64,000 nt of DNA from Providencia manganoxydans (GTDB taxonomy: Bacteria > Pseudomonadota > Gammaproteobacteria > Enterobacterales > Enterobacteriaceae): assembly GCF_016618195.1 (NCBI RefSeq), contig NZ_CP067099.1, positions 3,286,001 to 3,350,000 of the forward strand. Direction: 5' to 3'. Below are positions 12,428 to 25,480 of this stretch, piece after piece; within the stretch, counting starts at the first letter, position 1; each line of letters opens with the position of its first letter. Below the pieces are notes generated by a model. The model saw nothing but the letters and a program-made list of their open reading frames with translations, made no database searches and was not told where the DNA came from. A program made the position numbers and the translations under genes.

Positions 12428-13428
12428 ATTCGATTTTTCACCAATGGTGGCCTGTCGCTCTCAGCGCCCAATTGCGAAACAAACCTGTGGCAAGCCAATT
12501 ACATGACACGCCGCTGGTGCTATTTCGTACCCGTGAGGGGCGTGCCGCCGCGCTACCAGATCGTTGTCCGCACCGTTTTGCACCATTGAGCGCTGGCAAA
12601 GTCTGTGATGGGCAGATTGAATGTCCTTATCATGGTTGGCGGTTTTCCGCCGACGGACGTTGCACTCGAATTCCCGGTAGTGATCAAGCCTCGGGAAGCA
12701 AGCCTCTGCTCGATAGTTTGGCTTGTTGTGAAGCTTATGGGCTGGTGTGGGTAAGCTTGAGTACGGAAACCCTATTAACCCCACCTGTTGCTCCTGCTCA
12801 TCAGCATCAAATATTAGATACGTTCTGGATCACTGATCGAGTGCAATGTTCATTGCAGGATGCGGCAGAGAACTTTCTCGATGGATTTCATACTCATTTC
12901 GTTCACTCAGGCTGGATCCGTCATGATAAACAACGACAAAAAATCAGTGCTCAAGTTCACCCACTCGCAGATGGCGTCGAAGCCGTGTACAGCGAAGAGG
13001 GTAAACAGTCAGGGATTATTTCTCGGCTGTTTGAACGCGAGCGCGGCGTCAGTATGGGGCGTTTCCGTATGCCATGTCTGGCAGAAATAGAGTACCGCGA
13101 TGGCAATGATGCACTTAATCTACTAGTCAGTGTTTGGTTGGTACCATGTGGAAACGGTCAGCTACAACTGTTTGCTCGAATAGCCACCAAGCGTGGCTGG
13201 CTTCCAGCAATCATCAAACGTTACATATTAAGTAAGCTATTTCGCGTGATCCTGCGCCAAGATCGCCTGATGCTAGAGAAGGTTACTCACAATAAATTGC
13301 GTTTTCCAGACCCCTTGCTTACTCCTCTGGATGGAGAGCAGGACTTACTTGGCCCGAGTATACGTAAATTACTCGAAGATGGACAACCACTTATATTTGA
13401 GGAACGCCAGTTCTCTTTTTGGCTCTAA
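12424..13428 (+). CDS. Rieske-type mononuclear iron oxygenase
   Basis: A 334-residue Rieske non-heme iron oxygenase alpha-subunit-like protein. The [2Fe-2S] ligands are C48-P-H50 and C67-P-Y-H70. The catalytic iron site is N150, D153, H156 and H161 (ENFLDGFHTHFVH). Such enzymes hydroxylate, demethylate, desaturate or cyclise small molecules and need a reductase partner; none is encoded nearby. The GTG start overlaps the upstream stop (GTGA), so all three genes are translationally chained. The closest families recalled are the vanillate demethylase-type oxygenases; the substrate is unknown. Confidence 0.85.
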   Translation: MNSIFHQWWPVALSAQLRNKPVASQLHDTPLVLFRTREGRAAALPDRCPHRFAPLSAGKVCDGQIECPYHGWRFSADGRCTRIPGSDQASGSKPLLDSLACCEAYGLVWVSLSTETLLTPPVAPAHQHQILDTFWITDRVQCSLQDAAENFLDGFHTHFVHSGWIRHDKQRQKISAQVHPLADGVEAVYSEEGKQSGIISRLFERERGVSMGRFRMPCLAEIEYRDGNDALNLLVSVWLVPCGNGQLQLFARIATKRGWLPAIIKRYILSKLFRVILRQDRLMLEKVTHNKLRFPDPLLTPLDGEQDLLGPSIRKLLEDGQPLIFEERQFSFWL

Positions 13429-13760: not shown

Positions 13761-13913
13761 CTATTTATTGTTCTCGGTATGATGATGCGGAACGTGCGCT
13801 TTAGATAACAGGTTAAAGAAAGCGCCGAGGCCATAAATCAACCCCATGATCAAAAACATCACGACTGGAACCATCAACAGGGCGAAGCCCATGCTTTTTA
13901 AAATATCAAACAT
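13761..13913 (-). CDS. acrZ: AcrAB-TolC pump accessory protein AcrZ
   Basis: AcrZ (formerly YbhT) is a one-helix inner membrane protein that binds AcrB and tunes drug export. The 50-residue product begins [19 protein letters not shown] and continues [11 protein letters not shown], matching the E. coli protein ([27 protein letters not shown]). The tail is His-rich and differs. GAGG lies 7 bases before the ATG. In E. coli acrZ directly precedes modABC; here the Rieske operon separates them, while acrZ still diverges from the modE locus. Confidence 0.93.
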
Positions 13914-14101: not shown

Positions 14102-14140
14102 ATGCAGGCAGAAATCTTACTAACACTAACATTTCAATAA
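14102..14140 (+). pseudogene. modE: Stranded native start of modE (12 codons)
   Basis: ATG at 14102 follows GGAAAGG with good spacing and encodes MQAEILLTLTFQ then TAA. E. coli ModE begins MQAEILLTLKLQ, so this is the original modE N-terminus, cut after codon 9 by prophage insertion. The modE promoter upstream (13914-14101) is presumably still intact and now drives only this peptide. The 13914-14328 stretch otherwise holds the acrZ promoter side, attL and a phage terminator, with no other gene. Confidence 0.9.
14117..14129 (+). repeat. attL core, 13-bp direct repeat
   Basis: TTACTAACACTAA here is repeated exactly at 24704-24716. Left of this copy is native modE 5' sequence; right of it is prophage sequence. 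Confidence 0.88.
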
Positions 14141-14253
14141 TCACATAAATCAATAAATATCAAAAAGATAGAAATAAAATAGATTAACATTTATACAACA
14201 AAATACTACATTTCACTCTAAATACATCAATAACTTACCCCTCCATTTCGAAT

Positions 14254-14277
14254 GAAAAAGAGGGGGAACCCCCCTCA
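14254..14277 (-). terminator. Terminator after the truncated terL
   Basis: On the minus strand a G/C-only stem (GAGGGG pairing with CCCCTC around 14260-14276) is followed by CTTTTTC. It ends leftward transcription of the prophage before it reaches the modE/acrZ region. Confidence 0.8.
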
Positions 14278-14328
14278 TTTTTGCATCACAATTTCGGCAC
14301 AGTTCGTCACAGTGTTTTTCTCTCCGTG

Positions 14329-14694
14329 CTATAGCCCATGGTAATCCCAATAATCATCCGCTTCTTTACCAAAACGAAATAGCAACTCTTCACCTGTAGG
14401 CCATACCCAACGTAATTCCGAGGCTGATGCTAAAAAGCGAGCGCCGTCTTTAAACAGTCGATACATACGTTTTGATTGCGTGATGATGTCACCAAGGTTT
14501 TTGTATTCCGTATCAAATATGACACCACGCCAAAATGAGCCATAACCCACGCCAACATTACGCCTAAAACGGGCAAGTTGTGCCGCTGTTTTGCCGGGGC
14601 CTCGCGTACCTTCATACAGTATTTCATTACAGGGGCAACTCAGGGATAACGATTGAGAGCCGGGCAAAGGTTTCCAGACTACATTGTATTTCAT
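14329..14694 (-). pseudogene. Terminase large subunit, N-terminal fragment
   Basis: The 121 residues match the N-terminus of phage large terminases: CPCNEILYEGTRGPGKT with the Walker A P-loop at about 27-36, then GYGSFWRGVIFD and WVWPTGEELLF. The product stops after DYWDYHG, just where full proteins continue for several hundred residues through the ATPase and nuclease domains. Sequence beyond the stop shows no further terminase homology in any frame, so this is a deletion rather than a point mutation. Its ATG overlaps the intended terS stop. Confidence 0.88.
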
Positions 14695-15256
14695 CCACCG
14701 AGTACCTCGCCTTGTTGCTGCTGTGCCGATTTCTCCCAGTCATCCACATTGTCACAAGATGAAACCAGCATGATGTTATGCTCATTCTTAACTTTAGCTT
14801 CGATTTGCTCTTTAAATGCTTGCACTTTGACATGCTTACCTAATAGTTCTAAGTTTTTCACTTTATCAGGCCATTTGATTTCTTAAGCAATGCTTCAGTA
14901 TCTTCTTCACCCGAAGAAATGGACATAATATCTAAACCACTTAGTGTGGTTCGCCAAGATTTAGGCCAATCCTTGACGGGTTTTAAGTCGCCATTCTCAG
15001 TGAGAATATCCAGCACATCCATTTGGTCGATTTCAACTAACCGCTTAAGGACATAATCAGCGTCAATTTCAACACGCTCATTCCTATTTGATTTAAGTTC
15101 TTTAATTTTGTTTTGAATGTTAACATTTACTAACAGCCGGCTTGCTTGTGCGTTAGCAGTTTTATCGCTGTACCCCGCACGAATAGCCGCTTGTGTAGCG
15201 TTCAAATCAACGAGGTACTCACGACAGAACATTTCTTGTTTATCGGTGAGTGCCAT
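14691..15256 (-). pseudogene. Terminase small subunit with a frameshift
   Basis: From ATG 15256 (AGGAAG six bases upstream) the product starts MALTDKQEMFCREYLVDLN with the NATQAAIRAGYS helix-turn-helix of TerS. The open frame ends early near 14858. Restoring one A in the A-run at about 14877-14882 continues the protein as [18 protein letters not shown] to a TGA at 14691-14693 that overlaps the terL start. A single-base deletion therefore breaks the last third. It could be true decay or a homopolymer sequencing error. Confidence 0.8.
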
Positions 15257-15266
15257 GATTACTTCC

Positions 15267-15401
15267 TTATTGCTGAGATAGAAACTCATTTAAGTTTCTG
15301 ACTGCTTCTTGCGGAGTTCTACCTATCGCATTATCCATTCTTAATTTAGCCCTCCACCCTTGACGGGTTAGCCGGATATGTGGCTTGTTTTTGCTACTCA
15401 T
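15267..15401 (-). CDS. Small phage protein upstream of terS
   Basis: A 44-residue basic ORF beginning MSSKNKPHIRLTRQGWR and ending LNEFLSQQ. GGTGGA precedes the ATG. It sits between the blc terminator and terS in the late direction. No family is recognised; position and ribosome binding site support a real gene. Confidence 0.5.
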   Translation of the reverse strand: MSSKNKPHIRLTRQGWRAKLRMDNAIGRTPQEAVRNLNEFLSQQ

Positions 15402-15411
15402 ATTCCACCCA

Positions 15412-15435
15412 ATAAAAAACCCGCACTAGGCGGGT
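15412..15435 (-). terminator. Terminator after blc
   Basis: ACCCGC (15419-15424) pairs with GCGGGT (15430-15435). On the minus strand the stem is followed by TTTTTTATT. It isolates blc from the terminase genes. Confidence 0.85.
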
Positions 15436-15478
15436 CATATGATTTTCATTAATTAAAGCTTTAAATAAGAAATTAACT

Positions 15479-15994
15479 CTATTGAAATATCAATATTCTT
15501 TGTCTATCAAAACCATAATGGCTAGCAAAGTTAATATATTCATTTAATAACTCTGGCGGCATAGTTGGCGTGCGAGAGAGAATCCATAGATAATCTTTAT
15601 TAGGTCCAACAACTAATGAATACTGATAGTTATCATCTAGCTTAATAATATTATAGCCGCCGTAAAAGGGCCCAAAGAATGAAACCTTTAAAGCCCCAGT
15701 ATCCGAGGATTCAACAAAGTAAGCTTTTCCTATACTTTCCTTCCATTTTTTATTTTTGGAATCCCATCCTCTGTTCACTACTTTTACGCCTCCATCATCA
15801 CGAAGAGAATAATTAGCGGAGACCTTGTTTAACCCTTTCTCAAATCGATTATCGATTCTAGCTACCTCATGCCACTCCCCTAGATAACGAGATAAATCAA
15901 AATCATTAACGGGTGATATATCTTTTGGCACTTTAACACTGCAACCGTTAAGTAGCAGCATACTTAAAAACATTAGTGTTGACTTTATCTGCAT
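15479..15994 (-). CDS. blc: Outer membrane lipoprotein lipocalin Blc, prophage cargo
   Basis: Blc is a bacterial lipocalin that binds lysophospholipids and fatty acids at the outer membrane. The 171-residue protein has a lipoprotein signal with lipobox LLNGC (Cys at about 18), the lipocalin motif YLGEWHEVARIDNRFE, and the Blc-typical NYSLRDDGGVKV, SFFGPFYGGYN and DYLWILSRTPT. It is flanked by terminators on both sides (15412-15435 and 16036-16056) within the phage late region, the classic arrangement of a moron expressed in the lysogen. GAGG lies 7 bases before the ATG. Confidence 0.92.
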   Translation of the reverse strand: MQIKSTLMFLSMLLLNGCSVKVPKDISPVNDFDLSRYLGEWHEVARIDNRFEKGLNKVSANYSLRDDGGVKVVNRGWDSKNKKWKESIGKAYFVESSDTGALKVSFFGPFYGGYNIIKLDDNYQYSLVVGPNKDYLWILSRTPTMPPELLNEYINFASHYGFDRQRILIFQ

Positions 15995-16035
15995 TGTAAC
16001 CTCACTCAGAATTCACTGATGAGATACTTTCGCAT

Positions 16036-16056
16036 AAAAAAGGCCGCTGAGCGACC
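16036..16056 (-). terminator. Terminator after the lysis genes, before blc
   Basis: GGCCGC pairs with GCGACC (one G-T pair) at 16042-16056; the minus strand continues with TTTTTT (16041-16036). Confidence 0.75.
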
Positions 16057-16127
16057 TACTTGTAATCCAGTGCGATTTGCAACTTGTTTTCTGCTTCTTG
16101 CTTATTGTGTAGTAAGTGAGCCTTCAT
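16056..16127 (-). CDS. Possible 23-residue phage peptide
   Basis: ATG at 16127 follows GAGGTGGT and encodes MKAHLLHNKQEAENK... ending DYK at a TAG that touches the terminator stem. It lies directly after Rz. Nothing is known of it and it could be chance. Confidence 0.3.
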   Translation of the reverse strand: MKAHLLHNKQEAENKLQIALDYK

Positions 16128-16168
16128 ACCACCTCACTTAATTGCGAAGAAGCCATTAAAAATCCCCG

Positions 16169-16633
16169 TTAGTTAGCAGGGCATTCCGTGTTTATGTAAT
16201 TCTGCAAATACAATGTTTGCTTTTCGTTCTCAGCCATCATTTCTCTGAGACGCCAATAATCTTGTTCAGCTGCTTCACTAAGTCGTGCGGAGCTTTCATT
16301 GCTTCCGCTTTCGGAGGTATTCGCTTCGGGCTTTGGACATTTGGCGTTGACGTACACGCGCTTAGTGCCATTACTAACATCACTGCGCAACTGGTCAATT
16401 TCAGCTTTTGCATTTGTGAGTTCCGTTGTGTGTTTGGTGTCGAGTTCGTGAAGGGAGTTGATGCGCTTTTCGTAGTCTTCCGTGATAGCTACTTGTGCTA
16501 TTAGGTCATTATTAAGCTGTTTAATTTTCTCGTTTTTACTATTTATCGAGTCACTTAAAAAGTAAATAACGCCTACCATCGAAGCCAAGATAACAATTAG
16601 CGCTTTTTCAGCCCAACTCACAGTAAACTCCAC
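16169..16633 (-). CDS. Rz-like inner membrane spanin
   Basis: The i-spanin fuses inner and outer membranes at the last step of phage lysis. The 154-residue protein has one N-terminal transmembrane segment (about 10-28, ALIVILASMVGVIYFL), then a long charged coiled-coil periplasmic part and the LRSDVSNGTKRVYVNAKCP segment common to this Rz class. It overlaps the endolysin gene by 16 bases and contains the Rz1 gene in another frame. Confidence 0.85.
   Translation of the reverse strand: MEFTVSWAEKALIVILASMVGVIYFLSDSINSKNEKIKQLNNDLIAQVAITEDYEKRINSLHELDTKHTTELTNAKAEIDQLRSDVSNGTKRVYVNAKCPKPEANTSESGSNESSARLSEAAEQDYWRLREMMAENEKQTLYLQNYINTECPAN
16237..16413 (-). CDS. Rz1-like outer membrane spanin, nested inside Rz
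   Basis: A 58-residue lipoprotein encoded in a different frame entirely within Rz. It starts MQKLKLTSCAVMLVMALSAC, a lipoprotein signal with lipobox LSAC (Cys at 20), followed by a short proline-containing mature part (STPNVQSPKRIPPK). This nested design is characteristic of lambdoid Rz/Rz1 pairs. It is below usual ORF length cut-offs and is easily missed. Confidence 0.85.
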   Translation of the reverse strand: MQKLKLTSCAVMLVMALSACTSTPNVQSPKRIPPKAEAMKAPHDLVKQLNKIIGVSEK

Positions 16634-17046
16634 GCTTTTTCGAATGTAGCCTCACCATATGGCTGATAACCTAACTCAACGCTGACAATGGCTTTTGCTA
16701 ATGCAATCCCTGTCTTTTTATCGCTGGTATCGATTTTATCCAAAACAGCTACGCCGATATCATCAGCAGCCCTTCGGATATAACCCGTTGTATTGTTTTC
16801 AACTGGCGGCGCGTACTTATTTATTATGGCCGCTACAGAATTCAGCCCATATTTACGCTGGTAAGTTTGCAGTAACTTATAGATAGCTCGAATGCCATAC
16901 TCAGCGGATTGAAAACGACAGAATCGAGATTCAATGCTTGGGTCGTGAGGTAATTGCCCTTGCCATTTGTTAGCGGGGTTGTAGTCAATATTGCCGGGGT
17001 TATTGTTGCGTTCGCCTCGTGCTATTTTTCGCTGCTGATTACTCAT
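16618..17046 (-). CDS. Phage endolysin or muramidase-like protein
   Basis: A 142-residue protein with GERNNNPGNIDYN near the N-terminus, a motif shared by phage peptidoglycan hydrolases and virion lytic proteins with a lysozyme-like fold; FCRFQSAEYGIRAI follows. There is no signal peptide, so it would need the holin to reach the wall. It overlaps holin by 8 bases and Rz by 16, forming a compact lysis cassette. The cleavage chemistry is inferred from position and motif. Confidence 0.75.
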   Translation of the reverse strand: MSNQQRKIARGERNNNPGNIDYNPANKWQGQLPHDPSIESRFCRFQSAEYGIRAIYKLLQTYQRKYGLNSVAAIINKYAPPVENNTTGYIRRAADDIGVAVLDKIDTSDKKTGIALAKAIVSVELGYQPYGEATFEKAWSLL

Positions 17047-17353
17047 CGCCTAGTTTCCTTTTAAATTTACGCTCAATTGTTTTTACGAACTCCGCACCAG
17101 ACCAGCCAGCAATGCCAGCTATACCGCCTGCATATTCAGGAGCCCATTGAAAATATGACGCAGCAAGAAAAACGAATGAGCCAGCAAATACAGATACCAA
17201 AGCCTGAGCAATGAACATCCAGAGGCTAAACTTTTCACCATTGATGATTTTGTATGCATAGCTGGCAATAGAGCCTAGTAGCGTCATGATTACGATTAAT
17301 AACTCTCTCGCCCAGCTATAACAGAAGGGGTCTTTATAAGGCATTTTCTTCAT
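17039..17353 (-). CDS. Phage holin
   Basis: A 104-residue small membrane protein with three hydrophobic segments (LLIVIMTLLGSIASYAY; LWMFIAQALVSVFAGSFVFLAASY; AGGIAGIAGWSGAEFV) and a charged C-terminus (ERKFKRKLGDE), as in LydA-like holins. It is first in the lysis cassette. A strong GGGGGAGG precedes the first ATG closely; the second ATG (17344) is also possible and could give a dual-start holin/antiholin pair. Confidence 0.78.
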   Translation of the reverse strand: MKKMPYKDPFCYSWARELLIVIMTLLGSIASYAYKIINGEKFSLWMFIAQALVSVFAGSFVFLAASYFQWAPEYAGGIAGIAGWSGAEFVKTIERKFKRKLGDE

Positions 17354-17457
17354 ACCTCCCCCTTAGCTTGGGGCTGATTAAAGTTAATAGATAGCCGCGC
17401 ACAATTTCTATGCGTCAATTAAGTGTGTGTGATTAGAATTCTGTGGCGGCGTATACG

Positions 17458-17481
17458 AAAAAAAGCCGCTTTAGGCGGCTT
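17458..17481 (-). terminator. Terminator after the TudS-DUF1722 gene
   Basis: AAGCCGC (17463-17469) pairs with GCGGCTT (17475-17481); the minus strand continues with a run of seven T. It separates the cargo gene from the lysis cassette. Confidence 0.82.
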
Positions 17482-17609
17482 GTTAAAATAGAGTTGGTTT
17501 ACTTCATGTCAACAGTTATACGCTAACATAACTTTTAGATCCAACATTCATATGACTGAAAGAACTAATCATATGAACAACTTTGATATACTGAAATATT
17601 ACTTTAGTA

Positions 17610-18605
17610 TCATAGTCCATATCTCAATCTCAATGACTGGGGATAAGGATGAAAATACTTTTGATTATTTAAATAATCATCAGGATATTCAGACAAATAG
17701 TGCATTATTAATGTTAAGGGTGCTAATAAAGGCTGTATTCCTTGTCGATATTCAAGAATTAACTTACTCAATGCCTGTCTTTGGTTTGATGTAAGATAGC
17801 GCTTAAAATAACCTTGGATATGCATAAGCACATTGGTGTGATTACGCCTTGTAGCTTGTTGCTTTAATAAATTCATAAACTTATTTCGGTACTCATCAAA
17901 ATAAGAGTCAATTGATTCCCATTTATTGTTACTAGCAACAAAACGACCAAGTTCACGATAAAGAGGTTGCGAATGTGCTAGTAAAAGGAGCTTATATCGA
18001 GCATGAAACTCGATTAAAGAATGCCGATTAAATGAATTTTTCTTTAGTTCATTTAGCTCATGAAGAGCAAATACCCGTATAATAAAATTTTCTCGAATAT
18101 GAGGATCACTTAACCTGCCATCTTCCTCAACAGGCAGCCAAGGCATTCTCTTTATTAATTGTTCAGTAAAAAGCCCCATTCCAGATTTTTTATTACCATT
18201 ACCGACAGGATCATATACCCGAACTCTTTCCAAGCCACAGCTAGGTGAGTTCTTACATACAATATAACCACTTAAATTTAAAATACCATTCAAGTAAGCA
18301 GTCGAAAATAGTACCATTTCGTTAGTTAAATCGCCATCGCGACCATCACTGAATTTGAGTCTAAGGTTATTTTCTTTAGATTTAACTAACCTTAATGCAG
18401 GTCTAGGTGTCGGTAAACCAATCGCCATCTCAGGGCATGCTTGTTTGTATTCGAAATAATCGGATAACTCGTCTACAGCAAAATGGAAACGTTTATGACC
18501 ACCATCAAATCTGACACTATCACCCAATAAACATGAGCTAATACCTACAGCAATTTTTTTATCTGAAGCGTTACTCATATCTTTAGATGAAAAAACATTA
18601 GCCAT
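17610..18605 (-). CDS. TudS (DUF523)-DUF1722 protein, RudS-like thiouridine desulfidase, prophage cargo
   Basis: A 331-residue two-domain protein. The N-terminal half is DUF523/TudS with its cluster cysteines in VGISSCLLGD, QACPEMAIGLPTPRPALRL and CKNSPSCGLERV. The C-terminal half (about 190-320) is DUF1722, as in YbgA. This fusion matches RudS, described as a tRNA 4-thiouridine desulfidase that carries an iron-sulfur cluster. It has its own promoter-like sequence (18718-18747) and terminator (17458-17481), so it looks like a moron. The ATG at 18605 is preferred, AGGTGG lying 5 bases upstream; ATG 18608 and GTG 18614 are alternatives. Function is inferred from family. Confidence 0.85.
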   Translation of the reverse strand: MANVFSSKDMSNASDKKIAVGISSCLLGDSVRFDGGHKRFHFAVDELSDYFEYKQACPEMAIGLPTPRPALRLVKSKENNLRLKFSDGRDGDLTNEMVLFSTAYLNGILNLSGYIVCKNSPSCGLERVRVYDPVGNGNKKSGMGLFTEQLIKRMPWLPVEEDGRLSDPHIRENFIIRVFALHELNELKKNSFNRHSLIEFHARYKLLLLAHSQPLYRELGRFVASNNKWESIDSYFDEYRNKFMNLLKQQATRRNHTNVLMHIQGYFKRYLTSNQRQALSKLILEYRQGIQPLLAPLTLIMHYLSEYPDDYLNNQKYFHPYPQSLRLRYGL

Positions 18606-18717
18606 CATTGCCACCTTTATATAAAATCACTTATACGACTAAGTTAACATATAATAATACTGAGCTCATATTAGTAACATTGAACTTTATTACTAGCCCT
18701 ATAAATCACCGCTACAC

Positions 18718-18747
18718 ATTATAATAAATTAGACAAAAAACACTCAA
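18718..18747 (-). promoter_or_regulatory. Sigma70-like promoter for the TudS-DUF1722 gene
   Basis: On the minus strand TTGAGT (18747-18742), an 18-base spacer and TATAAT (18723-18718) lie about 110 bases before the start codon. Confidence 0.6.
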
Positions 18748-18913
18748 TGGCCAGTCCTTGGAATAATTTTTGGAATACTGTGTTGTTCGAAATGGTATTG
18801 TGGAGGCATACGCTGAGAGTATATGCATTCAGGTTCTCCATGGCGTGTGTACTTCTATTCTGATAAATACAGATAACCCATGCAAGTTAGCCAATCAGCC
18901 TTGGCATTCTCCA

Positions 18914-18982
18914 CAATGAAAACCCTACTTACTCTAATGCCGCTATGTGCAAGATAGAAGCTAGCAAATAGAGTTTTCATTG
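18914..18982. repeat. 10-bp inverted repeat in the prophage late leader
   Basis: CAATGAAAAC (18914-18923) and GTTTTCATTG (18973-18982) are perfect inverted copies 49 bases apart. They lie in the 470-base gene-free stretch 18615-19082, which otherwise holds the cargo promoter and the late terminator. A further 9-bp inverted pair, ATTGTGGAG near 18796 and CTCCACAAT near 18910, is present. Function unknown. Confidence 0.45.
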
Positions 18983-18992
18983 CCTAGAAAGC

Positions 18993-19014
18993 AAAAAACC
19001 CCACCGAAGTGAGG
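18993..19014 (-). terminator. tR'-like terminator downstream of Q
   Basis: CCTCAC and GTGGGG pair around a TTCG loop (18999-19014), followed on the minus strand by TTTTTTG. Its place, about 70 bases after the Q gene end and before the late genes, fits the terminator that Q overrides in lambdoid phages. Confidence 0.75.
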
Positions 19015-19063
19015 CTCTATAAGCTGCTGACGTTGTTGTCACTCTTATCACAATATCAGCTAT

Positions 19064-19077
19064 TTTACGTACGTAAA
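19064..19077. promoter_or_regulatory. 14-bp perfect palindrome after the Q remnant
   Basis: TTTACGTACGTAAA lies 6 bases past the Q stop codon, where the late promoter and Q-utilisation site are expected. It may be an operator or part of that site; no direct evidence. Confidence 0.4.
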
Positions 19078-19082
19078 GTATT

Positions 19083-19253
19083 TCAATGGATTTTTTCTAC
19101 GTATTTATCCATCTCCAAAGTTATATCTAGCCACATCAACATTCCGTCGATTTGCCCCTCTGCTTTTTGTAGCTTTTTCCCAATATGTCCATCAGAACAT
19201 TTGTGCTTTTTAGCCAACTGAATGAATGTCATGCCAAACAGATAATAATCGAG
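19083..19253 (-). pseudogene. Antitermination protein Q, C-terminal remnant
   Basis: Reading leftward from about 19253 the frame gives [20 protein letters not shown] then [18 protein letters not shown] and [11 protein letters not shown] before a TGA at 19083. This matches the C-terminal helix-turn-helix part of lambdoid Q proteins (HYxYGxxxxxIAxKHKCS, LQxAEGxIDGCL, LEMD). Everything upstream of this domain is missing; the sequence turns into the tail of an ssb gene on the other strand. An internal ATG at 19232 could still give a 49-residue product. Confidence 0.75.
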
Positions 19254-19421
19254 TATTCGACTGAGGTCACTGTAGGCATGGATGGAATCGTGAAGTTTCT
19301 AGACAAGAAACCACAGTCAACACAACAACAAAGTGGATGGGGACAGCCGCAACAACCGCAGCAACAAGCGCCGCAGAATGAGCCACCGATGGACTTCAGT
19401 GATTCAGATATACCATTCTGA
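19254..19421 (+). pseudogene. Single-stranded DNA-binding protein, C-terminal remnant
   Basis: From about 19254 the plus strand encodes [21 protein letters not shown], a Gln/Pro-rich linker (GWGQPQQPQQQAPQ) and the acidic tip NEPPMDFSDSDIPF. This is the end of the OB domain, linker and partner-binding tail of a phage SSB. The first roughly 100 residues are absent; instead the frame runs back into antisense Q sequence. An upstream in-frame ATG at 19185 would give a chimeric 78-residue peptide of doubtful use. Confidence 0.85.
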
Positions 19422-19456
19422 CCCTTCCCTATGTTATTTAACCAAAGGATATAACC

Positions 19457-19735
19457 ATGAGTATTGACTATGTACCAAAGATAATTATCGGAACAGATAT
19501 TGATAGCGTAACAATTGATGATGATGAAATAGATGATTTGCTAGATGATGAATATACGCAGCACGGATCATATTTAAGCGGTGAATTTAGTTTTATTGGG
19601 AAGGAGCTTTTTATTCATGAGATGCTTCAACCCGACTTCCAATTAAGATTTCGCACCCTGAAAGATGAAATTTCAGAAGAGCTAGGTGTAAGCCCTGATG
19701 ATATACACATAAGAAATGGCTTATTAATTATGTAA
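19457..19735 (+). CDS. Acidic phage early protein, unknown
   Basis: A 92-residue strongly acidic protein (DIDSVTIDDDEIDDLLDDEY in the first third). AAAGGA stands 8 bases before the ATG. It is the first intact early gene to the right of the ssb remnant. No domain is recognised. Confidence 0.7.
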   Translation: MSIDYVPKIIIGTDIDSVTIDDDEIDDLLDDEYTQHGSYLSGEFSFIGKELFIHEMLQPDFQLRFRTLKDEISEELGVSPDDIHIRNGLLIM

Positions 19736-19755
19736 TTTAATTACATGGAATATTT

Positions 19756-20163
19756 GCAAGGATGCAAACAGGAGATAGATATGACTATTGAACAGTTACA
19801 AGAAGAAAACACAAAGTTAAAACAAGCCATCACTGATATATACCGCAACTGTGAAGAATGTGAATTTGATGGAAGCGGTACTTATTATGCAATAGAGCAA
19901 GACCACGTTAATGATGCGTATGAGCTAGTAAACCCAACGTAATAATTTAACTCGCAGGGATGCAATAAGGAAATAAGCATGACAGATAAAGAGTATAAAT
20001 GCCATGACTGTGGAGAGGAAACAAAAATAATAGCCGGTACATCAGCAGAGGGATATCACGGTTTCATTATTCAATGCCCTCATTGCGGTTACGAGGCGGG
20101 ATTATTCAGAACAATCAGGGATGCTGAGTTTATTATTAACAGTAATTTATCGCAGGGATGCAA
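19756..20163 (+). repeat. Three copies of a 12-base leader motif before small early genes
   Basis: GCAAGGATGCAA at 19756-19767 and GCAGGGATGCAA at 19954-19965 and 20152-20163 each lie 13 to 15 bases before the ATG of the next gene, just ahead of its ribosome binding site. The copies are spaced by exactly 198 bases. Confidence 0.75.
19781..19942 (+). CDS. Small phage early protein with coiled-coil start
   Basis: A 53-residue protein beginning MTIEQLQEENTKLKQAITDI, a leucine-heptad coiled coil, followed by a short part with CEEC. The ATG at 19781 is chosen because GGAGA precedes it; the upstream ATG at 19745 has no ribosome binding site and includes the repeated leader motif. Common in tailed phage early regions; function unknown. 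Confidence 0.65.
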   Translation: MTIEQLQEENTKLKQAITDIYRNCEECEFDGSGTYYAIEQDHVNDAYELVNPT

Positions 20164-20176
20164 TGAAGAGGAATGA
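19979..20176 (+). CDS. Small zinc-ribbon phage protein
   Basis: A 65-residue protein with CHDCGEE near the start and CPHCGYEAG in the middle, a two-knuckle CxxC zinc ribbon. This recalls Lar/RalR-type and other small phage zinc proteins, but the identity is not certain. AAGGAAA lies 6 to 12 bases before the ATG and the repeated leader motif precedes it. Confidence 0.68.
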   Translation: MTDKEYKCHDCGEETKIIAGTSAEGYHGFIIQCPHCGYEAGLFRTIRDAEFIINSNLSQGCNEEE

Positions 20177-20178
20177 AT

Positions 20179-20634
20179 ATGAAAGACAGAATCAAGTTTA
20201 ACGATGCAATGTTAGCGGCTGTCATGGATGGCAGTAAAACGCAGACGCGCAGACGAATTGAGCCACAGCCAAGGGTAACATAAGAGGAGTTACGAACTCT
20301 TGGTGCATGGCAAGAAGGCTATTCACTATCCGAGCAAGTATGTGCAGCGTGGAGGCATGGGTTTGTTGATGTTGATTGCCCGTATGGTGAGATTGGCGAC
20401 ATCATCAACGTTGCGGATAAAAACGGTAATATCAAAGGGAAAATTGAGATTACTGATGTTTGGTTGCAGCAAGTAAATGATATCAGTGAAAGCGATGCTA
20501 AAGCTGAAGGGTTCGATGGGAAGCTAAGCGCTTACTCATCTGAGTTTGCTTTGATGTGGAATGCAATATACGGAACTGATAGCTGGATTAATAACGAATG
20601 GGCGTGGGTGATTGAGTTTGTAGTTGTAAGTTAG
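20179..20634 (+). pseudogene. ASCH-domain phage protein with an internal stop
   Basis: The frame from ATG 20179 encodes MKDRIKFNDAMLAAVMDGSK with TQTRRRI, then TAA at codon 35 (20281-20283), then continues in the same frame for 116 codons (YGEIGDIINV, ITDVWLQQVNDISESDAKAEG, FALMWNAIYG, WAWVIEF). The two parts together match the phage ASCH-like family in order and length. Only a nonsense change separates them. Confidence 0.78.
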
Positions 20635-20675
20635 TAAAGTAATGCCTCATATTTTAACTTGGCATCTATTTGATT

Positions 20676-21203
20676 ATGAAAATTAAATGTAGAAAATTTT
20701 ATCGAATGTTATTCTCTTCAAGTTCAACTCATAAAGGATTAAATATTACATCGCTGTCAGATGATAAATATAGAAATAAAGATTACAACTTTCACTTTAT
20801 ATCCTCAGCGTCATTAACGCTTATATCAGTTACATTTTTCATTGGAATGCTTAGCGTAAATTTGAAATCAATTAATAACCTAGCTTTTATAGAGTTATTT
20901 TTATCGATGCTATCATTTTCGATATCTATCGTAATAAATTCATTTTCATTATTTTACTTGTACTTAGCATTAAATAGCGAGCATGATAAAACACAGTTAT
21001 TAATAGTTTTTAAATATAGATTTTTTGCAGCCATGAAATTAATTTCATTTTTATCACCAGCACTAGGGGTTCTTTTTCTGATATCTTACTTTAATGAATA
21101 TATAGCTATGGCGTCATTTTTATTACTTATTCTTCTATTGTATTGCTATGGTCGAGTAATAGATAGAGCCTCAAGAAAAGCAACTAACATTATATATAAG
21201 TAA
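20676..21203 (+). CDS. Phage-encoded membrane protein, unknown
   Basis: About 175 residues, very AT-rich, with four predicted membrane segments (roughly 48-66, 74-98, 118-138, 143-160) and a basic C-terminus. The first ATG is at 20676, but the ribosome binding site is poor and a later Met is possible. It ends directly in its own terminator (21203-21225), so it forms a separate unit within the early region. A superinfection-exclusion or other lysogen role is only a guess. Confidence 0.6.
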   Translation: MKIKCRKFYRMLFSSSSTHKGLNITSLSDDKYRNKDYNFHFISSASLTLISVTFFIGMLSVNLKSINNLAFIELFLSMLSFSISIVINSFSLFYLYLALNSEHDKTQLLIVFKYRFFAAMKLISFLSPALGVLFLISYFNEYIAMASFLLLILLLYCYGRVIDRASRKATNIIYK

Positions 21204-21225
21204 CCCTGCACTAGCAGGGTTTTTT
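21203..21225 (+). terminator. Terminator after the phage membrane protein
   Basis: ACCCTGC and GCAGGGT form a 7-bp stem around ACTA (21203-21220), followed by six T. Confidence 0.88.
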
Positions 21226-21248
21226 ATACCTAAAATTCAGGAGTAAGC

Positions 21249-21530
21249 ATGGATAAATCAAGGCAGAAATTTGAATATTGGTACTTCAATAATCATAGTC
21301 ATGAGCAGAAATACCCGCTGCACAAAGATGAAAGCGGAGGGTATTTCTATGATGGAACAAGAAAAGCATGGGTGGCATGGCAAGCATCACGCGAGAGTTT
21401 AATTAATAGTTTGGAGCCTGTTGGTTATATATCGGAAGATGGATTGAATTCATTATCAGAAAATAGCGATGCAATAACCTCTTCCAAGCAGCAATATAAT
21501 AAAGTAATTCCTCTATATAAATTAGATTAA
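21249..21530 (+). CDS. Conserved phage early protein, unknown
   Basis: A 93-residue protein with YDGTRKAWVAWQASRESL, a phrase seen often in lambdoid early-region proteins of the Ea/DUF class, and VGYISEDGLNSL...VIPLYKLD at the C-terminus. CAGGAG stands 6 bases before the ATG. Function unknown. Confidence 0.75.
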   Translation: MDKSRQKFEYWYFNNHSHEQKYPLHKDESGGYFYDGTRKAWVAWQASRESLINSLEPVGYISEDGLNSLSENSDAITSSKQQYNKVIPLYKLD

Positions 21531-21536
21531 ATAACC

Positions 21537-21713
21537 ATGCAAATAATCGGATATGTATTACTCATGCTAATACAGGGTTCTGCTGTGCCTGTTACAGAGC
21601 AAATATACACACAGCAAGAATGCGAGAGCCGTGCGTGGCAAATAATGCAGGTGCGGGATGTTGAGATAGTTTGTGGAGAGGTATTCGGTGAGAAAATTAT
21701 CAACGATGGATGA
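21537..21713 (+). CDS. Small exported-looking phage protein
   Basis: A 58-residue ORF with a hydrophobic start (MQIIGYVLLMLIQGSAVPVT) that looks like a signal or anchor, then QQECESRAWQIM and VEIVCGEVFG with two cysteines. It begins 4 bases after the previous stop and overlaps the next gene by 26 bases. Similar short proteins occur in enterobacterial phages; role unknown. Confidence 0.6.
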   Translation: MQIIGYVLLMLIQGSAVPVTEQIYTQQECESRAWQIMQVRDVEIVCGEVFGEKIINDG

Positions 21714-21870
21714 GCTAATAGAGGCTAGTTACAACGAACATTGCAGAATAATCGTTAATTACTATTTCAGCGGTAGGCATGGAAATAAGAAGAATGAGCC
21801 TAAAGTTCCTAAATATAGGAGAGATAGAGTGTTAAATAAATTGGCAAGAGTAGAAATGGGTGAGATATGA
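21688..21870 (+). CDS. Small basic phage protein
   Basis: A 60-residue Lys/Arg-rich protein (GRHGNKKNEPKVPKYRRDRV). A GTG start at 21688 is preferred, with GGAGAGG six bases upstream; ATG 21706 is an alternative. It overlaps both neighbours, and its stop shares bases with the next ATG (ATGA). No family recognised. Confidence 0.55.
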   Translation: MRKLSTMDELIEASYNEHCRIIVNYYFSGRHGNKKNEPKVPKYRRDRVLNKLARVEMGEI

Positions 21871-22031
21871 AATTTAAAGTCGGCGATAAAGTTTATATTA
21901 AACCGTGGCATATTATAGCAACCATTTATTATGTTGATGACGAAGATTCCGCTATTCCCTACTTGGTCGAGGAGGAAGACGGTCAAACATCATGGTGGCA
22001 TGAGGAAGATTTGGAGTTAATCAATGAATAA
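21867..22031 (+). CDS. Small SH3-like phage protein
   Basis: A 54-residue protein, MKFKVGDKVYIKPWH then an acidic tail (EEEDGQTSWWHEEDLELINE). The opening resembles short SH3-like barrels with a KVGDKV turn. It is chained to both neighbours by ATGA and 8-base overlaps. Function unknown. Confidence 0.6.
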   Translation: MKFKVGDKVYIKPWHIIATIYYVDDEDSAIPYLVEEEDGQTSWWHEEDLELINE

Positions 22032-22263
22032 ATACACAGTAAAGGCTGAGAATGTAAAGCCGAACGACTGCATGATTGTAGCTGGCATCAGCGTTCGAGT
22101 GCGTTATTGTTATTATCACCACAGTAGCATCGAGCATATTAAAGGAAAGATAACGTTCGACCTGCAAAGGTTTGAAGATGAACTACATCCACTATGCGAT
22201 AAAACATTCATGAGAATATCTATGGATTTAGATGAGTTAGTTGAGGTGCTGAGAGATGAATAA
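22024..22263 (+). CDS. Phage early protein, unknown
   Basis: A 79-residue protein starting MNKYTVKAENVKPNDCMIVAG with a possible beta-rich fold. It overlaps the previous gene by 8 bases and the next by 8. GGAG lies upstream. No family is recognised. Confidence 0.6.
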   Translation: MNKYTVKAENVKPNDCMIVAGISVRVRYCYYHHSSIEHIKGKITFDLQRFEDELHPLCDKTFMRISMDLDELVEVLRDE

Positions 22264-22591
22264 ATACACCGAACTATCTGACTTCGAGATTAATAAAAAA
22301 GTTGCAGAATATACACTTCCTGCTGGGGATTGGTATGTTATTAATAAAAAAACCGAAAATGCTGTTGGGTGCTTTGGAACTTGTAGGTTCGACCCGTGCA
22401 ATAAATACAATGATGCAATGCCTATCATTATAGGTTACAGAATAAGCATGTATTTTGTTAGTGATAATATCGAATGGGCTGCTCGTGATAGTAATACAGA
22501 TTATGGTGAGCTTGAATGTACTGATAAAAATTACTGTCGTGCTGCTATGATTTTATTCTTGTTAATGAAGGATGTGGAGAATAATCAATGA
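22256..22591 (+). CDS. NinX-like protein (DUF2591)
   Basis: A 111-residue protein with the DUF2591/NinX pattern: YTELSDFEINKKVAEYTLP at the start, FDPCNKYNDAMPIIIGYRIS in the middle, then WAAR and CRAAMILFLLMKD near the end. NinX genes lie in the nin region of lambdoid phages; their function is not established. It overlaps both neighbours (ATGA with the next). Confidence 0.72.
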   Translation: MNKYTELSDFEINKKVAEYTLPAGDWYVINKKTENAVGCFGTCRFDPCNKYNDAMPIIIGYRISMYFVSDNIEWAARDSNTDYGELECTDKNYCRAAMILFLLMKDVENNQ

Positions 22592-22794
22592 AACAAGTTC
22601 AAGCAATGACAACGCTAGTATTAATTGATGGTGTTACTTATCAAATAGCATTACCAAAACAATATGTTTTACTGCAAACAAAGCAAGCATTGATGATGGC
22701 TACCGAATTCGAAGGTCGATTGGTGAAATGTGACTTTGCAGATTTGCAACCAATGAAAGCCGAAGGCATGCCTTTTAATATTAATCATGGATAG
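22588..22794 (+). CDS. Small phage early protein, unknown
   Basis: A 68-residue protein beginning MKQVQAMTTLVLIDGVTYQI, with no recognised domain. It starts in an ATGA overlap with the NinX-like gene, which supports translation by coupling. Confidence 0.55.
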   Translation: MKQVQAMTTLVLIDGVTYQIALPKQYVLLQTKQALMMATEFEGRLVKCDFADLQPMKAEGMPFNINHG

Positions 22795-22804
22795 GACATG
22801 GAAA

Positions 22805-23188
22805 ATGAATGAATATAGCAAACTAAATGATTGACAGATTAATCAATTGGTGCATAACTATTACGTTTGCAATGGCGAGTTTAATCTTGAGTTCACTCGT
22901 CACTCTGTGAGATGGATAAATAATAATTACGATATTACATATAAAAGAAATGAAGCAATAACTAAAATTGATCGTGATTATTTTGAGGATAAAATAATAT
23001 TTCACATAATTAGAAAATTTAAAATTAACATTCAATGGAGAGATTCAGTAAATCTATCACCGCTAGCTATTCATGAGAAGTTAATAGCAGAAAGTGCAGA
23101 TATATCTAGAGCTGTTCTAGAGTGCTATTTAATGATTAAAGAAGAAGGTAATTTAAAATGGATATTATCGACTCAGCAAACGAACTAG
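22805..23188 (+). pseudogene. Broken paralogue of the NinX-like gene
   Basis: From ATG 22805 the frame reads MNEYSKLND, then TGA (22832-22834), then QINQLVHNYYVCNGEFNLEF and on to 23188. The start matches the NinX-like MNKYTELSDFEIN, with the stop falling at the conserved Phe position. The remaining frame is open for 118 codons and could be restarted at GTG 22850. It overlaps the next gene by 31 bases. Confidence 0.6.
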
Positions 23189-23358
23189 AGCAATTACATA
23201 TTAAAGCCGCATTATCAAATCGCAAGGTAGCAATCAAATCATATAACGGAATGTGCATCTGGTGCGAAGAAATACCAGCAGCACCAAATAGCGCATATTG
23301 CAGTAAAGATTGTGGAGATGATTATGAAAAATATAAAAGAAAGAATGGAGGTGTATAA
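23158..23358 (+). CDS. TraR/DksA-like zinc-finger phage protein
   Basis: A 66-residue protein opening MDIIDSANELEQLHIKAALS like small phage and plasmid TraR/DksA homologues, followed by a four-cysteine finger (CIWCEE ... YCSKDCGDDYEKYKR). Family members bind RNA polymerase through the secondary channel and can mimic DksA with ppGpp. The finger here is a variant (C-x2-C, C-x3-C). Its GGAGGTGTATAA end leads into xis. Confidence 0.7.
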   Translation: MDIIDSANELEQLHIKAALSNRKVAIKSYNGMCIWCEEIPAAPNSAYCSKDCGDDYEKYKRKNGGV

Positions 23359-23616
23359 ATGCAAACAGTCAGAGAATTCGCAAAAAAACACAGAAGAAGT
23401 GATGAAACAGTTAGACGATGGATAAACTCAGGGAAAATATACCCTGCACCAACATTTGACGGGTATCAATATTTAATACACCCATCCGCAGAAAAAATAA
23501 CAAACTACGAAAAGCTTACCCCAAGCATTCTATTAAATAATAACTGCAAACTGTTAAAAAGGATTGAGACAGATGGCAAGAAACAGAAGCCCCAAAAACG
23601 CACACTTACCACCTAA
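23359..23616 (+). CDS. xis: Excisionase-like DNA-binding protein
   Basis: An 85-residue protein with a winged helix start, TVREFAKKHRRSDETVRRWINSG, and KIYPAPTFDGYQYLIHPSAEKI, as in lambdoid recombination directionality factors. It bends DNA at att and favours excision. GGAGG precedes the ATG, and its end overlaps the integrase start by 44 bases, the usual xis-int layout. Confidence 0.85.
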   Translation: MQTVREFAKKHRRSDETVRRWINSGKIYPAPTFDGYQYLIHPSAEKITNYEKLTPSILLNNNCKLLKRIETDGKKQKPQKRTLTT

Positions 23617-24637
23617 TTTATATTGCCGGAAAGGTTATTATAGTTACAGGAATCCTGAAACTGGAATTGAGTACGGCATAGGCAGAAATAAAGCCGAGGC
23701 AGTTAATGAGGCTATCTCGGCTAATTATCAAATATTATCAGAAAAGATAAAGCCAAGTTTAGTAGAAAGAATGGCTGACTCTGGAGTTATGTTGTATCAG
23801 TGGATTTCAGAGTATCAAGAAATATTAAAAAATAGAGATTTGAAGCCTAAAACATATAAATCATATATAAGTAAGCTAAATTCAATAAAAGAATATATTC
23901 CGAACATAAGTATATCCCTAGTTACACCTCAATTAATATCTCAATTGATAAATGAAATATCAAAAACAGGTAAAATATCCATGGCTGCTCAAGTGCGTAC
24001 AACTTCGATTGACCTATTTAGGGAAGCGATAATAAAAGGAATTTTAAAAGATAATCCAGCGGAGCACACAAAGCCTCCAAAAGTGCAAGTATCACGCTCA
24101 AGGATGTCATTTTCTGACTATGAATCAATAAAAAAAGAAATATCTGCTTTTGGTGATTTCTATCCGCTGTTAATGGATTTGGCGCTTCTTACTGGTCAGA
24201 GAGCTGGTGATGTGTTAAAAATTAAACGAAGTGATATAAAAGATGGTAGATTGTTTATTACTCAAGAAAAAACAGGGATAAAAATAGCAATTCCTCTTAC
24301 TTTATCCATGCTAAAATTAAGAAAATCTGTCAATGATGTACTGATATCCCCAGTGCTAGACAATAAAACTGAGTATCTATTCATAAACGAAAAGAAAAAC
24401 AACCTCCCTTATATGACACTATTCAGGAGGTTTAGCTCAGCAAGGGATAATTCAGGGTTAAAATGGCCTGATAAGACCCCTCCGTCCTTTCATGAGATAA
24501 GAAGTCTGTCAGCTAGGATATACTCTGAAGAAAAAAACAGTGAGTTTGCGAAAGCGCTACTAGGGCACAAGAGCATGAAAATGACCGCTGTTTACCAAGA
24601 TGAGCGCTCAAATGACTGGAATTACATTTCGGAATAA
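23573..24637 (+). CDS. int: Lambda-type tyrosine recombinase (integrase)
   Basis: A 354-residue integrase. The N-terminal arm-binding domain (PPNLYCRKGYYSYRNPETG, GIGRNKAEAVNEA) follows phage lambda Int. The catalytic residues are visible: TGQRAGDVLKIK (Arg), HEIRSLSA (His-x-x-Arg), LLGHKSMKMTAVYQDER (His and the nucleophile Tyr). ATG 23573 is chosen over an in-frame TTG at 23564, AAGGA lying upstream. It ends 67 bases before attR with no terminator in between. It appears intact. Confidence 0.95.
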   Translation: MARNRSPKNAHLPPNLYCRKGYYSYRNPETGIEYGIGRNKAEAVNEAISANYQILSEKIKPSLVERMADSGVMLYQWISEYQEILKNRDLKPKTYKSYISKLNSIKEYIPNISISLVTPQLISQLINEISKTGKISMAAQVRTTSIDLFREAIIKGILKDNPAEHTKPPKVQVSRSRMSFSDYESIKKEISAFGDFYPLLMDLALLTGQRAGDVLKIKRSDIKDGRLFITQEKTGIKIAIPLTLSMLKLRKSVNDVLISPVLDNKTEYLFINEKKNNLPYMTLFRRFSSARDNSGLKWPDKTPPSFHEIRSLSARIYSEEKNSEFAKALLGHKSMKMTAVYQDERSNDWNYISE

Positions 24638-24639
24638 TA

Positions 24640-24669
24640 TTGAGTGATTTTGGAAAGGCTCCATATAAC
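24640..24669 (+). promoter_or_regulatory. Prophage-borne promoter candidate for modE
   Basis: TTGAGT (24640-24645), 18 bases, TATAAC (24664-24669), then AAAAGG and the modE ATG at 24695. The sequence is on the prophage side of attR. It resembles the cargo-gene promoter at 18718-18747 (TTGAGT, 18 bases, TATAAT). Confidence 0.55.
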
Positions 24670-24694
24670 AAGTTGATATTTAAAAGGTTTATTT

Positions 24695-25480
24695 ATGGAT
24701 ATTTTACTAACACTAAAACTACAAGGAAATTTATTTGCTGATCCTCGCCGAATTTCATTACTAAAGCAAATCCAAGCGACTGGTTCGATTAGCCAAGGAG
24801 CAAAACTTGCTGGGATCAGCTATAAAAGTGCATGGGATGCTATCAACGAAATGAATCAACTTGCTGACGATATTTTAGTAGATAGAGCGACCGGAGGTAA
24901 AGGTGGTGGTGGTACAACACTCACCCACTATGGTGAAAGGCTACTGCAACTTTATGACCTACTTGCCCAAATTCAACAAAAAGCGTTTGATGTGCTGAAA
25001 GACGACAGTTTACCTCTCGATAGCCTATTGGCTGCAATTTCACGTTTTTCATTACAAACGAGTGCCCGTAACCAATTTTTTGGTCGTTTAATTGCGCGTG
25101 ATCATAACCAAGTCCAGCAGCATGTCAGCGTGTTATTGGCGGATAATAAAACCGTAATCAACGCCGCGTTAACCGAGCAAAGTGCCAACCGTTTAGGGTT
25201 GACTGAAGGTAAGGAAGTACTCGCTTTAATTAAAGCTCCTTGGGTGAAACTGAGCAAACAGCCGACTCTCGCTAATGAATTCGATAATGCCTTAAACGGT
25301 AAAATAACGACTCTTGAACGTGGTAAAGAAAATAGTGAGGTACTTATTACGCTCTCAGGAGGAGAAACACTGTGCTCAACGCTCAACAACCAAGAAGTCG
25401 ATAACCAACAACTTAAGCTTAATGATAGCGTGACAGCTCTATTTAATGCCGATCAAGTGATCATCGCCACGCTGTGTTAA
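24695..25480 (+). CDS. modE: Molybdate-dependent regulator ModE with a phage-supplied start
   Basis: ModE binds molybdate and represses modABC. The 261-residue protein keeps the winged-helix domain (ADPRRISLLKQIQATGSISQ, SYKSAWDAINEMNQL), the ATGGKGGGG turn, the QTSARNQFFG linker and two mop-like domains, ending NADQVIIATLC. Its first three codons (Met-Asp-Ile) come from the prophage and replace the native MQAEI; from LLTL onward it is host sequence. AAAAGG lies 7 bases before the ATG. The protein should be functional, but its promoter has changed. Confidence 0.95.
   Translation: MDILLTLKLQGNLFADPRRISLLKQIQATGSISQGAKLAGISYKSAWDAINEMNQLADDILVDRATGGKGGGGTTLTHYGERLLQLYDLLAQIQQKAFDVLKDDSLPLDSLLAAISRFSLQTSARNQFFGRLIARDHNQVQQHVSVLLADNKTVINAALTEQSANRLGLTEGKEVLALIKAPWVKLSKQPTLANEFDNALNGKITTLERGKENSEVLITLSGGETLCSTLNNQEVDNQQLKLNDSVTALFNADQVIIATLC
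24704..24716 (+). repeat. attR core, 13-bp direct repeat
   Basis: TTACTAACACTAA, identical to 14117-14129. It encodes the LLTL part of modE, and the reading frame is preserved across the junction. Confidence 0.88.

What the first reader, a model, noticed from the sequence alone, without database searches (positions are those of the whole stretch)
14102..24716. Prophage inserted in the modE coding sequence regenerates a working modE start
The native modE start (MQAEILLTLT..., 14102) is cut off at attL, while the rest of modE resumes at 24704 behind a prophage-borne RBS (AAAAGG), ATG and two codons, in frame. The 13-bp core TTACTAACACTAA is shared. Sequence around both starts is alike (AAAGGTTATATTTATG and AAAAGGTTTATTTATG), so the phage attP seems evolved to mimic and replace the 5' end of the target gene. 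Most gene-targeting phages restore a 3' end; 5' replacement changes promoter control of a regulator.
Basis: partly seen in the sequence, partly recalled or inferred. Interest (0 to 1): 0.85.

Follow-up and report, generated by a model that had tools for sequence, protein, structure and literature searches.

The report
Phage remnant supplies modE's start codon
A decayed virus sits inside the start of the bacterium's molybdate-control gene and replaces the lost beginning with its own ribosome site and start codon, a trick that related viruses also play on two other genes.

Summary
A 10.6-kb lambdoid prophage remnant lies in codons 6-10 of modE in a Providencia genome, flanked by a 13-bp core found only twice in the 4.34-Mb chromosome. 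In 22 of 23 other genus genomes modE was found; all 22 are uninterrupted and start MQAEILLTLKLQ, though none has the exact core (best 12 of 13, read). Joined host flanks give 263 aa. The phage supplies a weak Shine-Dalgarno site, ATG, GAT and ATT, giving MD-ILLTLKLQ. The integrase is lambda/HK022-type. Related integrases rebuild the 5' ends of ppnN and ypfN the same way, and two complete phages carry the cassette in attP. At ppnN, 18 of 18 uninterrupted sites read TTG and 3 of 3 phage-derived ones ATG. The modE and ppnN integrases share 51 identical N-terminal residues but differ beyond, so core and gene start may move as one module. The cassette resembles Morganella-like modE starts. Altered promoter control was not shown. 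Element-supplied 5' ends are known (dusA, prfC); this is a new variant with lambda-type integrases.

The parts
13761..13913 (-). acrZ-like gene, the native neighbour upstream of modE
   Evidence: acrZ-like ORF upstream in all 22 genus relatives with modE; name recalled, no NCBIfam hit
14102..14140 (+). orphaned native 5' end of modE; now a 12-aa ORF MQAEILLTLTFQ
14117..14129 (+). attL core TTACTAACACTAA
14130..24703 (.). prophage remnant, 10.6 kb
14225..14251 (+). left attP arm: IHF-like CATCAATAACTTA (one mismatch, by eye) and arm-type-like ATTTCGA, homologous to phage PSTNGR2lys
   Evidence: motif names recalled
14258..14276 (+). terminator-like hairpin just inside attL, scored on both strands
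   Evidence: 5 overlapping forms found, 0.2 expected in shuffles
14329..14694 (-). terminase large-subunit fragment (matches positions 150-262 of a 642-position profile)
   Evidence: phrog_979, E 9.7e-05; no Pfam hit
14858..15289 (-). terminase small subunit
   Evidence: PF03592
15479..15994 (-). lipocalin-like protein
   Evidence: PF08212
16169..17353 (-). lysis genes: Rz, endolysin-like, holin
17610..18614 (-). 2-thiouracil desulfurase domain plus DUF1722 protein
23359..23616 (+). excisionase
   Evidence: PF07825, E 3e-11
23573..24637 (+). lambda/HK022-type tyrosine integrase, 354 aa, residues R210 K233 H307 R310 H332 Y341 present
24626..24654 (+). putative arm-type sites ATTTCGGA and ATTTTGGA
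24666..24678 (+). putative IHF site TAACAAGTTGATA, inside the new modE leader
   Evidence: 12 full-consensus matches per 64 kb, both orientations
24682..24703 (+). phage start cassette: AAAAGG, ATG (24695), GAT, ATT up to the core
24704..24716 (+). attR core TTACTAACACTAA
24695..25480 (+). regenerated modE (MDILLTLKLQ..., 261 aa)
25640..27112 (+). modF
   Evidence: NF008186

Best explanation
A temperate phage with a lambda-type integrase recombined its attP with a core in codons 6-10 of modE. Its attP carries, on the integrase side, a start cassette: Shine-Dalgarno site, ATG and two codons, placed so that after crossover the ATG is in frame with the rest of modE. The native modE promoter and start are left behind at attL, where their transcript would end at a phage terminator. 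The phage later lost most of its genes. Shown by sequence: site, core, frame, uninterrupted modE in relatives, and the same architecture in attL/attR of ppnN and ypfN prophages and in attP of two complete phages. Inferred: that ModE is made from the new start, that transcription comes from the int side or from an unrecognised promoter, and that the cassette was selected because it spares a useful host gene.
For: core and frame; 22 intact relatives, joined flanks; integrase and excisionase; ppnN: G009 and G016 attL with TTG, attR with ATG; PSTNGR2lys attP; ypfN: G176 attL and attR, Pocitis76 attP, attR-type sites in G390 and L248; full IHF consensus 51-55 bp from the core end in 4 of 6 int-side arms.
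Against: No relative carries the exact 13-bp core (best 12 of 13). No promoter match in the int-modE gap (0.8 expected by chance). The predicted Shine-Dalgarno pairing of the phage leader is weaker than the native one (-3.4 against -5.5 kcal/mol), as for ppnN and ypfN. The closest relative by integrase, L034 (85%), is cut at the int stop codon and shows no att site, so no second phage at modE was seen. PSTNGR2lys and G016 lack a full IHF consensus on the int side.
Confidence: 0.87

Rival explanations
1. Insertion in effect knocks modE out or nearly so: the regenerated frame is a chance by-product, and the gene is silent for want of a promoter.
For: No consensus promoter in the gap; weak Shine-Dalgarno site.
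Against: The 261-aa frame is intact and belongs to the ModE family at 467.7 bits; the same ATG placement recurs at ppnN and ypfN, which chance does not readily give; int and modE are 57 bp apart with no terminator found between.
Confidence: 0.1
2. The MD start was not made for Providencia: it is a captured piece of a Morganella-type modE, so the phage was shaped in that host and moved over. (This concerns the origin of the cassette and can hold together with the best explanation.)
For: All 4 genomes of group g117 in the sample (Morganella inferred from the name of cluster P0018, 88-90% identical) have TTGGATATTTTATTAACACT(G/A)A; the cassette matches 17, 17, 18 and 17 of 19 bases after the start codon.
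Against: Over the 16 bases comparable in all genomes the g117 score (14 and 15 in the two tested) is hardly above that of the 22 Providencia genomes (12-14), so the case rests mainly on the GAT codon and the frame length. The leaders upstream are not alike. The reverse, a Morganella modE start that is an old phage scar, is open too: an ORF without phage hits lies between acrZ and modE there.
Confidence: 0.45
3. The 13-bp repeat is chance and the element entered by illegitimate recombination.
For: The core is only 13 bp, and the exact sequence is absent from the relatives' modE.
Against: Two exact copies in 4.34 Mb, exactly at both half-genes; integrase, excisionase and arm-like sites at the right place.
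Confidence: 0.02

Closest known systems
dusA-specific prophages and islands (PMC4482086, passages seen; PMC8409611, abstract and passages seen)
   Same: Integration in the 5' end of a coding gene; the element supplies a new in-frame 5' end. [quoted passage not shown]
   Different: There an altered stretch of 35 initial residues (61% identical to native) is reported and a promoter is shown; here the integrase is lambda-type, only ATG and two codons come from the phage before the core, and no promoter was found. Kinship of the integrases was not tested.
ICE SXT at prfC (statement seen in PMC8409611; primary paper not seen)
   Different: Conjugative element, not a phage; other target.
Phage lambda / HK022 integration
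   Same: Int with arm-binding domain (PF09003), Xis next to int, attP with arm-type-like and IHF-like sites; 39.7% identity to HK022 Int.
   Different: attB of lambda and HK022 is intergenic (recalled).
Providencia phage PSTNGR2lys (MW145137) at ppnN; Hafnia phage Pocitis76 (OL512804) at ypfN
   Same: attP carries RBS, ATG and core in the same place.
   Different: Other target genes; integrases 49.4% and 41.8% identical to the window's; records described as complete genomes.

Membership tests
lambda-type integrase family | N-terminal arm-binding domain plus tyrosine-recombinase catalytic domain | tested here: met
   PF09003 E 5.1e-16, PF00589 E 9.4e-22
lambda-type integrase family | catalytic R-K-H-R-H-Y residues | tested here: met
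   (set recalled from lambda Int)
lambda-type integrase family | excisionase gene next to int | tested here: met
   PF07825; its ORF overlaps the int start
lambda-type integrase family | attP with arm-type sites and IHF sites | tested here: inconclusive
   full IHF consensus and two ATTTCGGA-like sites on the int side; left IHF-like site one mismatch off; binding not testable
lambda-type integrase family | recombines attP with attB | not testable with these tools
   needs excision PCR
elements that replace a gene's 5' end (dusA/prfC kind) | core inside the 5' coding sequence | tested here: met
elements that replace a gene's 5' end (dusA/prfC kind) | element-borne start codon in frame | tested here: met
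elements that replace a gene's 5' end (dusA/prfC kind) | element-borne promoter | tested here: inconclusive
   no consensus match; not proof of absence
dusA-associated integrase family | integrase homologous to dusA-associated integrases | not tested
   not compared
complete temperate phage | full set of head, tail, replication and repressor genes | tested here: not met
   17 phage ORFs scanned; lysis genes and TerS present, TerL a fragment, an SSB fragment; no capsid or tail protein recognised (the 142-aa endolysin also hits head and tail families, read as a shared lysozyme domain); 10.6 kb in all

The most novel reading that the evidence does not exclude
In these lambdoid phages the integrase catalytic domain, the core and a host-gene start cassette form one exchangeable targeting module behind a constant arm-binding domain and P arm. 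Swapping the module moves the phage from one gene start to another, and each lysogen's target (modE, ppnN) is then expressed from a leader that contains the phage's IHF and Int sites, so lysogeny retunes a host regulator. Scars of such phages (G017 ppnN, perhaps Morganella modE) permanently rewrite gene starts.
Probability: 0.3. Interest if true: 0.72.

Novelty: new variant of a known kind. Interest (0 to 1): 0.52.

Why it matters
It shows phages with lambda-type integrases rebuilding gene starts, at three unrelated host genes. It gives a testable case in which lysogeny changes the leader, start codon and N-terminus of a regulator, and a sequence example of how an integrase may change target: the part of the protein beyond the arm-binding domain differs together with the core and the gene start, while the arm-binding part stays.

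Tried and rejected
Scans of viral contigs for the attP cassette (TTATGGATATTTTACT; 57 stretches) and for the left junction (4 stretches) gave no extended match (all 61 read). L034, the nearest integrase (85%), is trimmed at the int stop; of 4 records searched for the left junction with up to 3 mismatches, one had a single 3-mismatch hit, taken as chance. P0124 (64% integrase) found no viral contig. One search kept 80 of 324 viral loci; only the 6 that run past int were examined: one more ypfN copy, five unresolved.

The family search gave 22 integrase hits besides the window's own. Att sites were sought in 14: L137 and L138 (ypfN) and 12 more; 8 were not examined for cores. Of the 12, four gave a 15-17-bp repeat: L143 in the leader of a hydroxyisourate hydrolase-like gene (TIGR02962), L144 upstream of a gene (repeat 59 kb away), L139 inside an aconitase-like gene, L151 inside a transporter-like gene (last two names from reading the sequence). 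Eight gave none that convinced: short contigs (L147, L141), 40 kb only (L145), or only short or multi-copy repeats in 60 kb (L140, L148, L136, L150, L157). So 5' start replacement is not general: 3 of 7 resolved target sites (modE, ppnN, ypfN), a sample that was not drawn at random.

Rejected: the promoter TTGAGT-18-TATAAC noted by eye is not supported by the scan. A claim that the phage improves translation is not supported: ATG stands for TTG at ppnN, but Shine-Dalgarno pairing is weaker in all three pairs, and weaker than in the Morganella-like leader (-6.3).

Literature (ten searches); 615 papers, 20 listed, the word 'mode' too common to be useful. 'modE gene' + prophage + attachment site: 1 paper; ygdH + prophage + integrase: 0; ypfN + prophage: 1; ppnN + prophage: 4. 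These six were seen as listings only, none by its title about such insertions. The library is open-access PMC only. Papers opened: PMC8409611 and PMC4482086, passages.

The Morganella-capture rival went from 0.5 to 0.45 because the 16-base comparison was left out of the draft.
Full report
OBSERVATION. The native modE start at 14102 (MQAEILLTL) enters the sequence TTACTAACACTAA and then foreign DNA; 10,587 bp further the same 13 bases follow ATG GAT ATT and lead into the rest of modE in frame. The 13-mer occurs exactly twice in the 4,342,370-base chromosome. In the window there are five further copies with 2 mismatches (7 matches in all, 2.4 expected), which I take as background. Of 60 genomes searched for ModE, own included, 37 matched. 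I read the start of 29 loci (L004-L032): all 22 from the genus read MQAEILLTLKLQ; of the seven others four do, and L029 reads MQAEILLTLKLR, L026 MQAQ, L032 MNAE. G019, the remaining genus genome, has only a weak partial hit. In all 22 genus loci an acrZ-like ORF lies 230-376 bp upstream and no integrase motif lies between. The joined host flanks align to L007 without a break and encode 263 aa. None of the 22 has the exact core; L004-L006 differ at one base, others at more.

THE ELEMENT. From attL: a terminase large-subunit fragment, small subunit, a lipocalin, Rz, endolysin, holin and a desulfurase/DUF1722 protein on the minus strand; then small early genes, excisionase and integrase on the plus strand. 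Of 17 phage ORFs scanned none was recognised as capsid or tail protein; the endolysin also matches head and tail families, which I read as its lysozyme domain. Not every ORF was scanned, so 'remnant' rests on length, the cut TerL and this scan. The integrase (354 aa, start read as 23573) keeps all six catalytic residues.

THE SAME TRICK ELSEWHERE. Integrases about 50% identical lie beside ppnN (NF038390). In G009 attL reads ...TTACTTGATTACTCATATCAGTCCATTAGG and attR ...AAAAGGGAAAAAAATGATTACTCATATCAGTCCATTAGG; G016 has the same pair; PSTNGR2lys, a circular record called complete, carries the attP. In the genus, 21 of 24 genomes have the ppnN start pattern, at 23 sites; the pattern leaves the first base of the start codon free, and three genomes have none. 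18 uninterrupted sites and 2 attL sites have TTG, and 3 phage-derived sites have ATG. The third of these, G017, is a scar: the integrase is broken by stops, only one copy of the core remains, and ppnN keeps the phage ATG and leader. Integrases of the ypfN group (41.8-43% identical) lie beside ypfN (NF010185, PRK13664; the name ypfN is recalled): G176 has attL with the native ACAGGGGGCAACCATG and attR with AAAAGGTGATAACTATG, Pocitis76 has the attP, and L248 shows attR again. G390 has two sites, one of which is attP-like, perhaps a tandem insertion; no native site was seen there.

HOW INTEGRASE AND SITE RELATE. Between the window and PSTNGR2lys, DNA identity per 60 columns is 77-98% from about 23125 to 23721 (excisionase and the first part of int), then 40-68% to the end of int and core; part of the left arm of attP is alike again. 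The first 51 residues of the window's integrase and of the G009 one (L033; also cluster P0125) are identical. A tree of 28 integrases without the first 70 residues puts the modE group (4 rows, of which only the window's site is known) and the ppnN group (4 rows, 2 with known site) on long, separately supported branches, and the ypfN group (6 rows, 3 with known site) elsewhere (support 91); the order of the first two is open (quick method, SH-aLRT only). I read this as exchange of catalytic domain, core and gene start together, behind a constant arm-binding part. That reading is inference from one pair plus the tree.

attP ANATOMY. On the int side, arm-type-like sites (ATTTCGGA and kin), a full IHF consensus 51-55 bp from the core end in 4 of 6 arms examined (window, G176, G390, Pocitis76; not PSTNGR2lys or G016), then Shine-Dalgarno, ATG and core. 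The full consensus occurs 12 times in 64 kb. In the lysogen these sites lie in the modE leader.

WHERE THE CASSETTE COMES FROM. In 392 family genomes the pattern for MDILLTLK with ATG is found only in the window's genome and G376, whose protein reads MDIFLTLKLHDRLFAD (my reading). The four genomes of group g117 start modE with TTG-GATATTTTATTAACACT, 17, 17, 18 and 17 of 19 bases after the start codon alike with the phage cassette. Over the 16 bases that can be compared everywhere, two g117 genomes score 14 and 15 and the 22 Providencia genomes 12-14, so the GAT codon and frame length carry most of the weight. Of 517 ModE homologues the best 120 were listed; 7 of these start MDILLTLK and P0067 holds LDILLTLK; the cluster P0018 is named Morganella sp.. 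Either the phage took the Morganella-type start, or that start is an old scar; neither a full IHF consensus nor an arm-type site is found in the 200 bases before the L221 start.

EXPRESSION. No sigma-70-type match lies in 24500-24760 (0.8 expected by chance), and no terminator. Predicted pairing with the anti-Shine-Dalgarno sequence is weaker for the phage leader in all three pairs (modE -3.4 against -5.5, ppnN -5.3 against -8.7, ypfN -4.3 against -9.4 kcal/mol); 18.5% of random 20-mers of the window pair as strongly as the phage modE leader. A hairpin with T run lies at 14258-14276. modA is present at window 8948-9607, minus strand, so the regulator's usual target (recalled) is next door.

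PRIOR ART. PMC4482086 (passages) describes prophages and islands that replace the 5' end of dusA. PMC8409611 (abstract and passages) shows by lacZ that such an island supplies promoter and N-terminus at lower expression, and states the same kind of replacement for SXT at prfC. So the principle is known; what I did not find described, in the searches named under Tried and rejected, are the three targets here, the lambda-type integrase in this role, ATG for TTG, and the module exchange. Open: expression, excision, and whether other strains carry a whole phage at modE.

Noticed in passing
window 10137-13428: Three plus-strand genes (ATP-grasp, an unknown 390-aa protein, Rieske oxygenase with VanA_C domain) lie between modA (8948-9607) and the acrZ-like gene (13761-13913), which lie close together in some family relatives (by reading); possibly a separate insertion.
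   Followed up: partly
L164 (G017), just upstream of ppnN: Decayed integrase with stops, single core copy, but ppnN keeps the phage ATG and leader: a scar that outlived the prophage.
   Followed up: partly
L160 (G390 C15:123521): An attP-like junction (int-side arm plus start cassette, then the other arm) inside the genome, as if two phages were stacked at ypfN.
   Followed up: no
L219-L222, between acrZ and modE: Morganella-like genomes have a roughly 190-aa minus-strand ORF between the acrZ-like gene and modE; the two copies scanned have no PHROGs hit and no Pfam hit above cut-off. acrZ lies 922-950 bp upstream there, against 154-376 bp in the other loci where it was found.
   Followed up: partly
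window 15479-15994 and 17610-18614: A lipocalin and a desulfurase/DUF1722 protein sit among the phage lysis genes, perhaps cargo.
   Followed up: no
phage record OR851453.1: A 1.8-kb record named Salmonella phage S.Kent 1-2-1 holds a modE-like stretch and is probably bacterial DNA.
   Followed up: no
L267, L157: Other lambda-type integrases lie about 160-170 bp upstream of a glutathione reductase-like and an HldE-like gene (names from reading the sequence); att sites not resolved.
   Followed up: no
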